Shown here: positions 22,484 through 50,147 of the stretch, in pieces
Numbering within the stretch: position 1 is the stretch's first letter
How the letters are laid out: every line of letters begins with the position of its first letter
Assembly (NCBI RefSeq): GCF_000025485.1
Contig: NC_013851.1
Coordinates: 1,713,154-1,777,153, forward strand
From: Allochromatium vinosum DSM 180
GTDB taxonomy: Bacteria; Pseudomonadota; Gammaproteobacteria; Chromatiales; Chromatiaceae
Direction of reading: 5' to 3'
Length of the DNA stretch: 64,000 nt
Translations under genes and position numbers: made by a program
Notes under the pieces: model-generated
What the model was told of the DNA's origin: nothing
The model's database searches: none
Seen by the model: only the letters and a program-made list of their open reading frames with translations

Positions 22484-23659
22484 TTACTGCAAATCGAGGC
22501 CGTTTTGACCTGGATTCGACCCGCTTGCACTCGATTGGTGCATCGGCGTCGAGGCGCGTTCTTCAGCGCGCCCCAGACCAATCCCCGCCACAGGCGTTCC
22601 GCAGTCCGGACAGATGCCATGCCGGACACGGTTCTCCAGCAGCTGAAAACCGTGACGGTGGATGAGCCGCGCGCCGCATCCGGGGCAATGGGTATCCTCG
22701 CCGCCATCGCCCGGCAGATTGCCGACATAGACATACCGCAAGCCGACCGCAAGCCCGATACCGGCAGCACGTCTGAGCGTCGCCGAGGGCGTGGGCATCA
22801 CATCGGCCATGTGATAGGCGCCATGGAACCGCGAGACGTGCCAGGGGATGTCGGGCGAGACCGAATGGATGAAGCGCGCGATGTCGCGCAATTCCTCGTC
22901 CGAGTCGTTGACGCCCGGAATCACCAGGGTCGTGACCTCCACCCATACACCGAGGGCGTGATAGCGACCGATGGCGTCGAGCACCGGCTGGAGCCTGACG
23001 CGGCTGATGTGACGGTAGCTCTCGTCGCGGAAGAACTTGAGATCCACGTTGGCCGCGTCCAGCACACCGGCCAGCTCGCGCTGGGGCGCCGCGTTGATGT
23101 AGCCGTTGGTGACGAAGATATTGATCAGCCCCGCCTCGCGCGCCAGACAGGCCGTCTCATAGGCCAGCTCATAGAAGATCGTCGGCTCGGTATAGGTGTA
23201 GGCGATGGAGCGCGCGCCCGCTGCCTGGGCCGCGCGCACGATCTGCGCCGGCGTCACCGGCTCGCCGGGCACCCGGTCGCCGAGTCGCGCCAGTTGGGGA
23301 CAGAGCGGCGTCCCGTCCGCCGACACGGCCTCGTCCGGCTCCAGATGCTTGGGAAGACGCTCGCGCGGCCACTGCGAGATCTCCCAGTTCTGGCAGAACT
23401 CACAGCGCAGACTACAGCCGACCGTGGCGATCGAATAGGCCGTCGATCCGGGATAGACATGGAACAGCGGCTTCTTTTCGATCGGATCGAGACTGCGCGA
23501 GACGATCCGATCGGCCACCAGCGTGAAGAGGGTGCCCTGACTGTTGTAGCGCACCGCGCAGACACCGCGACCCGCGTTCGGGATGATGCAGTCGTGTGGA
23601 CAGAGCCGGCACTGGACGCGCTTGGCGTCGAGCCGGTCGTAGAAGCGAGCCTCCTTCAT
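22484..23659 (-). CDS. amrS: AmmeMemoRadiSam-system radical SAM enzyme
   Basis: 391 residues. It has the radical SAM cluster motif GCSLRCEFCQNWEISQ (CxxxCxxC) near residue 82, after an N-terminal Cys cluster CRLCPHDCIIPNAGRGVCAVR, which is typical of the AmrS family. Other conserved parts are YTYTEPTIFYELAYETA, VDLKFFRDESYR and PWHVSRFHGAY. A second Cys pair set (CPGCGARLIHR, CPDCGTPV) forms a C-terminal zinc-ribbon-like tail. Reaction unknown for the family. Neither the AMMECR1 (AmrA) nor the Memo (AmrB) partner lies nearby. GGAGG precedes the start; a mobile-element-like hairpin begins about 18 bases upstream of it. Confidence 0.88.
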   Translation of the reverse strand: MKEARFYDRLDAKRVQCRLCPHDCIIPNAGRGVCAVRYNSQGTLFTLVADRIVSRSLDPIEKKPLFHVYPGSTAYSIATVGCSLRCEFCQNWEISQWPRERLPKHLEPDEAVSADGTPLCPQLARLGDRVPGEPVTPAQIVRAAQAAGARSIAYTYTEPTIFYELAYETACLAREAGLINIFVTNGYINAAPQRELAGVLDAANVDLKFFRDESYRHISRVRLQPVLDAIGRYHALGVWVEVTTLVIPGVNDSDEELRDIARFIHSVSPDIPWHVSRFHGAYHMADVMPTPSATLRRAAGIGLAVGLRYVYVGNLPGDGGEDTHCPGCGARLIHRHGFQLLENRVRHGICPDCGTPVAGIGLGRAEERASTPMHQSSASGSNPGQNGLDLQ

Positions 23660-23671
23660 CAGTTCCTCCGC

Positions 23672-24056
23672 GAGAAACCCCGTCCTTCAGGGCGGGGAGG
23701 GATAGTGGCTACGACCGTGCAGTCGCCGGAAACAGGTGCAGGCTTTCCACCTGCCGGGCCGCGAGGCTCTGCCCGTAAGGGCCTGGTGACGGTGCGGCGT
23801 CTCACGACGCCACACGCTCCCCTCGCCAATGTGTGCAACCGGCTCCCGCTGGCGCGGCGATCAAAACCTTCGACGCTTTACCTTTCGCCTGCATCATTTC
23901 GACCTTTCAGAGCGGCGGACTGAGGAAGCATCCGCCGGTGAGTCTTAGCGACCTGTTGCATACGTAGCCCCTTTCGACCGTCCTGGTCAGGCGGGCTGAG
24001 GCTGGTCAACCCAGCTTGCTCTCACAAGCTCCGGCCTTCAGGCCGGGGTAGTTGAC
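23672..24056. mobile_element. Non-autonomous IS200/IS605-like element (hairpin-bounded, no transposase)
   Basis: A block of about 385 bases between two leftward genes, bounded by two hairpins with the same TTCA loop: CCCCGTCC/GGGCGGGG at 23678-23697 and CTCCGGCC/GGCCGGGG at 24029-24048, the latter followed by TAGTTGAC. Subterminal imperfect hairpins are the TnpA recognition signals of IS200/IS605 elements. There is no inverted terminal repeat pair or target duplication, as expected for this family. No TnpA, TnpB or IscB frame remains inside. Exact ends are uncertain by several bases. Confidence 0.6.
23700..24012. ncRNA. Candidate HEARO/omega-RNA-like structured RNA inside the element
   Basis: The interior folds into many perfect stems: CAGGTG/CACCTG at 23733-23753; GCCC-GTAA-GGGC at 23771-23782; GGCGTC-TCAC-GACGCC at 23796-23811; CGGCGGA/TCCGCCG at 23913-23937; GACC/GGTC at 23976-23988. 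It keeps no protein similarity. From memory the layout and wording resemble the HEARO RNA (omega-RNA) of IscB elements. Strand is unclear: GTAA is a GNRA loop on the plus strand, but GTGA on the minus strand is one for the next stem. No nuclease gene accompanies it. Confidence 0.4.
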
Positions 24057-24088
24057 GTTCGGACCCTCCCAAACAGACCACAGGCCGC

Positions 24089-49863: not shown

Positions 49864-50035
49864 GGACGGCCTCCAGCGATCGCCGGCAAACAGCCGCCAT
49901 ACTGGGTGAGTCGTCTCCGGGGAGCGCGCGAGGCGTGTCGTACAGAACAGCGTGACATGAACGATCCAAAGGGGGCCGGGACGATGAACCTTACAGACAG
50001 GACAGAGCGCGCCCAGCCCCAGCCGGACACTCCAT

Positions 50036-50147
50036 CGAGTCCAAAGTCTCGTCAAGCCACAAGCCGCGCACGCCATGACCGATCGGTCAAGGATGTTGAC
50101 GTGCGCCCCTTCCATCGCGGAAGGGCGACTACTCCCCTCAAGACGCG
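50036..50147 (-). ncRNA. yybP-ykoY manganese riboswitch
   Basis: On the minus strand the leader reads GAGGGGAGTAG, then a stem CGCCCTTCC/GGAAGGGGCG, CACGTCAACATCC, a palindromic stem GACCGATCGGTC, and near the end GGCTTGACGAGACTTTGG. GGGGAGTAG, CGTCAACAT and GACGAGACT are the conserved blocks of the yybP-ykoY motif in the right order. It lies upstream of a TMEM165/GDT1 gene, a usual partner, about 170 bases ahead of its start. The roughly 170-base stretch to the start codon may hold the expression platform. Confidence 0.8.

What the first reader, a model, noticed from the sequence alone, without database searches (positions are those of the whole stretch)
23672..24056. Hairpin-bounded structured element, candidate nuclease-free HEARO/omega-RNA locus
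Two TTCA-loop terminal hairpins like IS200/IS605 ends enclose about 310 bases of densely structured, non-coding sequence with at least six perfect stems, and no TnpA, TnpB or IscB gene. If it is an omega-RNA, it stands alone and could act in trans with an IscB or TnpB elsewhere in the genome, or be repurposed as a small RNA. Resemblance to HEARO is from memory and not proven.
Basis: partly seen in the sequence, partly recalled or inferred. Interest (0 to 1): 0.7.

Follow-up and report, generated by a model that had tools for sequence, protein, structure and literature searches.

The report
Nuclease-free guide-RNA transposons at start codons
A small piece of mobile DNA that keeps the guide RNA of the IscB nuclease but not the nuclease gene has spread through purple sulfur bacteria, often landing exactly between a gene's ribosome-binding site and its start codon and bringing a replacement ribosome-binding site with it.

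Summary
Rfam's HEARO (IscB omega-RNA) model matches window 23811-24056, minus strand, over its full length (101.9 bits, cut-off 83). No IscB or TnpA match lies in the window. The genome has nine HEARO loci: five beside an open iscB frame, four alone. This 397-nt element (23660-24056) is one of 29 full-length standalone copies in four Allochromatium genomes. All 29 exceed the HEARO cut-off, and the fold is kept by two-sided pair changes.

Empty sites in sister species, including acpP, show insertion between the native Shine-Dalgarno and ATG without duplication. Native Shine-Dalgarno-like motifs flank 22 of 37 such elements, 5 of 23 iscB-type elements and 37 of 459 ATGA sites of the window. The predicted guide is the displaced native ribosome-binding region; the predicted target motif is ATGA, the start codon.

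Best reading: a non-autonomous IscB-type (IS200/IS605-like) element, moved and retained in trans, made tolerable by its own ribosome-binding site. Trans action and translation are inferred, not shown.

The parts
23660..24056 (-). Whole standalone element, 397 nt, read in omega-RNA orientation (GTCAAC... to ...GGAGGAACTG)
   Evidence: Same ends in 29 other standalone copies; empty sites of the same gene in sister species
23811..24056 (-). HEARO (IscB omega-RNA) scaffold
   Evidence: Rfam RF02033, 101.9 bits, model 1-211 of 211; two-sided pair changes among 29 copies
24057..24072 (-). Predicted 16-nt guide, the host sequence upstream of amrS. Guide side and length are recalled from IscB biology, not tested
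   Evidence: Position directly 5' of the HEARO; the empty allele of A. humboldtianum joins the matching flank to ATGA
24064..24070 (-). Native Shine-Dalgarno-like GGGAGGG of amrS, moved away from its start codon by the 397-nt element
   Evidence: A. humboldtianum empty site ...gggagggtcaaacc ATGAGGGAGG (L140)
23698..23810 (-). Conserved tail with small hairpins (four counted, the first overlapping the end of the HEARO match); shared with S4, which carries a different HEARO; its first part matches, by eye, the leader between HEARO and iscB in full-length elements
23678..23697 (.). Subterminal hairpin CCCCGTCCTTCAGGGCGGGG; nearly the same hairpin ends the genome's TnpA-bearing element
24031..24048 (.). 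Hairpin at the HEARO-side end, part of the omega-RNA 5' domain
23663..23669 (-). Element-borne Shine-Dalgarno GGAGGAA, 3 nt (CTG) before the ATG; GGAGG itself ends 5 nt before it
   Evidence: Last 12 bases GCGGAGGAACTG in 21 of 30 standalone copies; GGAG kept in 26 of 30
23656..23659 (-). ATGA: start codon of amrS, insertion target (TCAT on the other strand) and predicted IscB target-adjacent motif
22484..23659 (-). AmrS-like radical SAM gene (name AmrS by eye) whose start codon now follows the element's end
   Evidence: ORF; Pfam Radical_SAM PF04055
24089..26932 (-). Co-directional upstream ORF (acyl-activating plus acyltransferase, by eye); the element sits between two same-strand ORFs
   Evidence: ORF

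Best explanation
The element is a non-autonomous derivative of an IscB-carrying IS200/IS605-type transposon: the nuclease gene is gone and the omega-RNA and both hairpin ends remain. Shown: intact HEARO fold, many copies, precise insertion before ATGA, five open iscB frames elsewhere in the same genome, and an element end with a Shine-Dalgarno next to the host start codon. Inferred: a TnpA supplied in trans moves it. The omega-RNA is made from read-through operon mRNA and loads IscB made elsewhere. The loaded complex would cut only the empty allele (displaced ribosome-binding region + ATGA), so that repair copies the element back. Insertions between a Shine-Dalgarno and an ATG survive because the element supplies a new Shine-Dalgarno, so the host gene, even acpP, is still translated.
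For: HEARO over the whole model. Nine HEARO and five open RRXRR frames in the genome, so four HEARO are alone. The IscB scanned carries RRXRR and HNH domains and matches solved IscBs. 29 full-length standalone copies at 87-100% identity, 29 of 29 above the HEARO cut-off (3, 14, 12). Pair conservation 89.8%, 14 pairs with two-sided change, 0 of 500 shuffles, slid controls 31-42%. Empty sites without target duplication at amrS, aprM, a PotC-like permease, a DUF2304 gene, glgP, sat and one unnamed gene, and at acpP, empty in 7 of 8 genomes. GGAG at the element end in 26 of 30 copies. A scan whose pattern stops before ATG: 25 of 25 stretches have ATG within 12 nt, and 20 of 25 an open frame of 75 aa or more. 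Native Shine-Dalgarno-like flank in 22 of 37 SD-ended elements, against 5 of 23 iscB-type elements (Fisher p 0.007) and 37 of 459 ATGA of the window (p 2e-15). A Y1 TnpA-bearing element has nearly the same terminal hairpin.
Against: No transcript, translation, transposition or cleavage was measured. The standalone omega-RNA is only 73-77% identical to the genome's iscB-linked ones, so IscB compatibility is unproven. The iscB-type elements, without a GGAG end, also show a slight excess of native Shine-Dalgarno flanks over the window (5 of 23, p 0.03) and an ORF of 75 aa or more in 10 of 23, near background. The ORF contrast with them is weak for the 30 standalone copies (22 of 30, p 0.047). An SD-ended family in G007 is followed by such an ORF in only 7 of 23 sites, the background rate, so the end motif alone does not produce start-codon sites. 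Of 7 mini-elements only 3 have a native Shine-Dalgarno-like flank. One copy (G5m) seems, by eye, to interrupt a gene. In the single-sequence fold the Shine-Dalgarno pairs with UUUCUC. S1 and G5k occupy the same amrS site but fall in different clades. The measure 'further pair types' was reached by 47 of 500 shuffles.
Confidence: 0.66

Rival explanations
1. Passive MITE: the HEARO segment is carried along only because it contains an end recognised by TnpA. It no longer guides anything, and spread needs only TnpA in trans.
For: Mini-elements of 45-46 nt with one hairpin and no omega-RNA also sit before open frames of 105 aa or more (7 of 7), and a tail-only copy without HEARO lies before a gene in G029, so the omega-RNA is not needed for presence at such sites.
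Against: 29 of 29 full-length copies exceed the HEARO cut-off, with 14 two-sided changed pairs, 11 of them in HEARO helices away from the terminal hairpins.
Confidence: 0.25
2. Repurposed leader RNA: the omega-RNA in the mRNA leader regulates the downstream gene, or is a small RNA acting on other genes.
For: S1 lies between two same-strand ORFs; the Shine-Dalgarno can be masked by UUUCUC. A search of the genome with 13 guide bases + ATGA, up to 3 mismatches, gave 21 sites against 0 for the reversed pattern.
Against: The downstream genes that could be named are unrelated. Where orthologous sites were compared, amrS is filled by this family in 2 of 7 genomes and acpP in 1 of 8, unlike a conserved regulator. 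None of the 21 sites is exact; the only hits with 2 mismatches are the locus itself and one other.
Confidence: 0.12
3. The start-codon position is only the TCAT target motif plus selection against disruptive insertions; the GGAGG end is an accident of the transposon end sequence.
For: iscB-type elements with a non-SD end also hit some starts (10 of 23 with ORF of 75 aa or more; native Shine-Dalgarno-like flank 5 of 23, slightly above the window); the SD-ended G007 family shows no ORF excess.
Against: The excess of native Shine-Dalgarno flanks is larger in SD-ended elements (22 of 37 against 5 of 23, p 0.007). The iscB-type elements end GCGCAAGACTG or a close form without GGAG, so the GGAGG is a difference between the two classes.
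Confidence: 0.27

Closest known systems
HEARO RNA / IscB omega-RNA (Rfam RF02033; OMEGA systems)
   Same: Full-length covariance-model match, same architecture and position at the element end
   Different: No nuclease gene in the element; the guide, if it lies where IscB guides do (recalled), is a host ribosome-binding region
IscB-carrying IS200/IS605-type transposons (five in the same genome)
   Same: Similar terminal hairpins, same ATGA/TCAT site, HEARO followed by a similar leader sequence
   Different: iscB absent; the end is GCGGAGGAACTG instead of GCGCAAGACTG or close forms; omega-RNA 73-77% identical
Non-autonomous IS200/IS605 derivatives (MITEs, PATEs; recalled)
   Same: Short, multi-copy, no transposase, end similar to that of a TnpA element, no target duplication
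   Different: Retains a covarying omega-RNA and places a Shine-Dalgarno at a host start codon
IStrons (recalled)
   Same: A transposon of the TnpB/IscB world with a device that limits damage to the host gene
   Different: The proposed device is a supplied ribosome-binding site, not a self-splicing intron

Membership tests
HEARO / IscB omega-RNA | Match above the curated covariance-model score over the full model | tested here: met
   101.9 bits against 83, positions 1-211 of 211
HEARO / IscB omega-RNA | Fold maintained by compensatory change | tested here: met
   14 pairs changed on both sides, 0 of 500 shuffles; slid controls 31-42% paired
HEARO / IscB omega-RNA | Guides IscB to DNA next to a target-adjacent motif | not testable with these tools
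   Only predicted: empty sites read flank + ATGA
IscB-encoding OMEGA transposon | iscB gene within the element | tested here: not met
   Element is 397 nt; the five IscB genes of the genome are elsewhere
Non-autonomous IS200/IS605 element | Subterminal hairpin like that of a Y1 TnpA element | tested here: met
   Match of 37 bases at 89% at the TnpA element
Non-autonomous IS200/IS605 element | Insertion next to a fixed short target without duplication | tested here: met
   Empty-site comparisons; ATG after the end in 29 of 30 copies
Non-autonomous IS200/IS605 element | Mobilised by TnpA in trans | not testable with these tools
   Only inferred from similar ends and copy number
IStron | Group I intron fused to the transposon | tested here: not met
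   No intron family above its gathering score in the window

The most novel reading that the evidence does not exclude
A start-codon-capturing, RNA-guided parasite. The element inserts between a gene's ribosome-binding site and its ATG, takes the displaced ribosome-binding region as its guide and the start codon as its target-adjacent motif, and gives the gene a replacement ribosome-binding site. Removal would then leave an allele that the cell's IscB cuts, while keeping it costs little, even at essential genes.
Probability: 0.4. Interest if true: 0.8.

Novelty: new variant of a known kind. Interest (0 to 1): 0.62.

Why it matters
If right, it shows how a transposon can colonise the most sensitive site of a gene, the gap between ribosome-binding site and start codon, without killing it. 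It also shows that an omega-RNA can spread apart from its nuclease. Four Allochromatium genomes carry 3 to 14 standalone full-length copies each with known empty alleles in sister species, a natural system for testing whether IscB acts in trans to keep nuclease-free elements in place.

Tried and rejected
Folding energy as evidence of structure: z only -0.73, not used. Guide targets elsewhere in the genome: no exact match to 13 guide bases + ATGA; one other site with 2 mismatches, the rest with 3 (21 sites including the locus itself, 0 for the reversed control), so a second target for S1 was not claimed. A coding remnant in the tail: by eye no convincing IscB C-terminus; L093 (G084), a standalone HEARO element with a non-SD end, looks by eye like an intermediate that keeps more of the iscB 3' end, not followed further. 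The claim that a Shine-Dalgarno end always means start-codon sites was rejected after the G007 family (7 of 23). Shared S1/G5k ancestry at amrS was not accepted because the copies fall in different clades. In one search, matches of G3a (72%, a likely paralogue), G3d (unclear junction) and one iscB-type element were not counted as empty sites; the glgP flank is only loosely similar.

Searches added the rest: three mini-elements without a native Shine-Dalgarno-like flank (two of them before the same gene, with ATGG instead of ATGA), and L069 and L070 (flank positive), L008 and L072 (negative; iscB broken in L072). L073 has iscB but no HEARO-side end was found, so it is left out of the flank count; its downstream ORF is 170 aa. 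The earlier figures were 22 of 34 against 3 of 19 (p 0.0013); the mended ones are 22 of 37 against 5 of 23 (p 0.007). I lowered the best explanation from 0.68 to 0.66 and raised the third rival from 0.25 to 0.27 for that reason.

Limits: one search scored at most 40 candidates per genome and at most 21, so copy numbers are lower bounds. IscB was sought with Pfam in G000, G005 and G006 of the genus; in the 22 loci used as iscB-type elements it was confirmed by tblastn. Of the 15 HEARO hits in G084, 10 exceed the cut-off and only two loci were looked at.

Literature: search listings showed, in the rows listed, no paper describing Shine-Dalgarno-bearing IS200/IS605 ends or standalone HEARO elements at start codons. 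I saw passages only of PMC3049150, PMC9755519, PMC11870625 and PMC12558985. Altae-Tran 2021 and Meers 2023 are not held. What I say of IscB guide side and length, target motifs, MITEs/PATEs and IStrons is recalled.

Full report
What is there. The Rfam HEARO model (RF02033, the IscB omega-RNA) matches window 23811-24056 on the minus strand over its full length, 101.9 bits against a cut-off of 83, E 8.2e-20 for the window. The element is longer than reported: 23660-24056, 397 nt, in omega-RNA orientation from GTCAACTACCCC to GCGGAGGAACTG, directly followed by ATGAAGGAG, the start of an AmrS-like radical SAM gene. No PF14239 (IscB) or PF01797 (TnpA) match of the genome lies in the window.

The genome. 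Contig sizes (3,526,903 bases for contig 1; 3,669,074 in all) fit Allochromatium vinosum DSM 180; that name is recalled. The genus is supported, where contigs with the lengths of those of G001 and G003 are A. palmeri DSM 15591 and A. humboldtianum DSM 21881. The genome holds nine HEARO loci, all above the cut-off, and five RRXRR frames of 526-535 aa without stops. Five HEARO adjoin these frames and four stand alone. One IscB, given twice to Pfam, carries RRXRR and HNH domains and matches solved IscBs such as TbaIscB and OgeuIscB. Of two Y1 TnpA matches, one sits in an element whose end has nearly the same hairpin (37 bases at 89%).

The family. The 406-base query recovers 29 full-length copies (392-399 nt) at 87-100% identity: 3 in the window's genome, 7 in G001, 5 in G003 and 14 in G005 (at most 40 candidates were scored per genome). 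A fourth standalone element of the window's genome, S4, has a different HEARO but the same tail at 90%. All 29 exceed the HEARO cut-off: 3, 14, 12. In G084, another genus, 15 HEARO hits (10 above the cut-off) stand against one IscB hit; two of those loci were looked at, and L093 is a standalone element with a non-SD end.

Is the RNA maintained? On the alignment of the 29 copies, the structure taken from the Rfam alignment of S1 plus four small hairpins downstream has 89 pairs: 89.8% of cells pair, and 14 pairs and 81 cells show two-sided change. 0 of 500 shuffles reach these three values or the covariation score; 47 of 500 reach the number of further pair types. With partners slid by 1-3 columns 31-42% pair. 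The structure came from one of these sequences, and copies may exchange segments (G5n and G3e share one replaced helix), so the counts are not independent events. Folding energy alone is not unusual.

The end of the element. In the 30 standalone copies (29 plus S4) the last 12 bases are GCGGAGGAACTG in 21; GGAG is kept in 26, GGAA stands in 3 and GGAT in 1. ATG follows in 29 of 30; in S3 it is ATTGAGATG, one T more than expected from the empty site. To avoid circularity I scanned the genome-contig collection with a pattern that stops before the ATG: 25 stretches, 25 with ATG within 12 nt, 24 of them ATGA, 20 with an open frame of 75 aa or more, in Allochromatium, Thiocystis, Halochromatium, Thiodictyon, Thiorhodococcus, Ectothiorhodospira, a Competibacteraceae bin and an unnamed Chromatiaceae bin. 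Some of these are the same sites as above.

Empty sites. At amrS, A. humboldtianum reads ...tttgggagggtcaaacc ATGAGGGAGG and A. palmeri ...gcgggagggccacgac ATGAAGGAGG, whereas A. vinosum and G005 carry the element at the junction. Of 7 genomes with amrS, two are filled by this family, one (G007) by another element, four are empty. The same junction is seen, against one held locus each, at aprM (S3), a PotC-like permease (G5d), a DUF2304 gene (G5f), glgP (G1d; the empty allele is in this window, start codon at 30420-30418, flank only loosely similar), sat (G1g) and an unnamed gene (G3e). At acpP seven of eight genomes are empty; four of these read gagaggaatcaa(t/a)cct ATGAGCAGC and three have variants of it. 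Only G005 has the element, with gagaggaatcaatcct upstream of it. No target duplication is seen. At amrS and acpP the element thus parts a native Shine-Dalgarno-like sequence from its ATG and supplies another. The names acpP, sat, aprM, glgP and PotC are by eye, with Pfam matches where searches give them; AprM has none.

Statistics. I asked whether GGAG, GAGG or AGGA occurs 16 to 5 nt before the site. SD-ended elements: 19 of 30 standalone copies and 3 of 7 mini-elements, 22 of 37 together. iscB-type elements: 5 of 23. ATGA sites of the window: 37 of 459. Binomial p 2e-15 against the window; Fisher p 0.007 against iscB-type elements. The iscB-type elements are themselves slightly above the window (p 0.03). 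ORF of 75 aa or more after the site: 29 of 37 (22 of 30 and 7 of 7), 10 of 23, and 159 of 459; Fisher p 0.011 for all SD-ended, 0.047 for the 30 alone, 0.048 without the shared amrS site. Of the 26 downstream proteins of 60 aa or more scanned, 21 have a Pfam match at E 0.001 or better, two of them below the curated cut-off; among them SurE, FliL, RNase PH, phosphorylase, ATP-sulfurylase, a phosphopantetheine carrier, Prismane and a BamB-type propeller.

Against an over-simple reading. G007 has at least 40 copies of another element end, TGCGGAGGGTCT, followed by ATGA in 23 of 23 ends read; one, the end of an element with TnpA- and TnpB-like ORFs by eye, sits independently at the amrS start (L143). 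Only 7 of the 23 are followed by an ORF of 75 aa or more, the background rate. A Shine-Dalgarno-like end therefore occurs in more than one family and does not by itself direct insertion to starts. The simplest account is survival: where the element falls between a Shine-Dalgarno and ATG, an element with its own Shine-Dalgarno is tolerated and kept.

How it may work. Shown: anatomy, copy number, precise junctions, omega-RNA conservation, iscB elsewhere in the same genome. Inferred: transposition by TnpA in trans; transcription from the operon (S1 lies between two same-strand ORFs); loading of IscB made elsewhere; cutting of empty alleles, whose predicted target is the displaced ribosome-binding region and whose predicted motif is ATGA; translation from the element's GGAGG. 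In the single-sequence fold this GGAGG can pair with UUUCUC upstream, which could weaken or regulate translation; in the consensus fold it is mostly unpaired.

Verdict. Standalone omega-RNAs and IS200/IS605 MITEs are known kinds (recalled); the combination with an element-borne ribosome-binding site at start codons was not found in the rows listed by the searches named under Tried and rejected.

Noticed in passing
window 50005-50143, minus strand: Manganese riboswitch (yybP-ykoY, RF00080), 65.8 bits against 45.
   Followed up: no
L143, L156, L160, L162, L164, L166, L168-L185 (G007): A second Shine-Dalgarno-ended element family with at least 40 copies in one genome; the copy at the amrS start codon is the end of an element with TnpA- and TnpB-like ORFs by eye.
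   Followed up: partly
L094, L095, L096, L097, L098, L099, L100: Mini-elements of 45-46 nt: one hairpin carrying both element ends plus GGAGGAACTG or a close form, each before an open frame of 105-451 aa; two sit before the same gene in different genomes, at ATGG.
   Followed up: partly
L003 1890-1910: Between sat and aprM the junction carries one extra T (CTGATTGAGATG) against the expected CTGATGAGATG, which removes an ATG just before the real one.
   Followed up: no
L001 and L064: The same amrS site is filled in two species by copies of different subfamilies (91% identity, different clades): independent insertion or gene conversion.
   Followed up: no
L089 (G029): A tail-only derivative lies before a gene that looks like ihfB (by eye), with the Shine-Dalgarno end kept; G029 has no HEARO match.
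   Followed up: no
L013 2272-3164: Next to one full-length IscB element a repeated GSSPRARGT-type reading suggests a CRISPR array (by eye).
   Followed up: no
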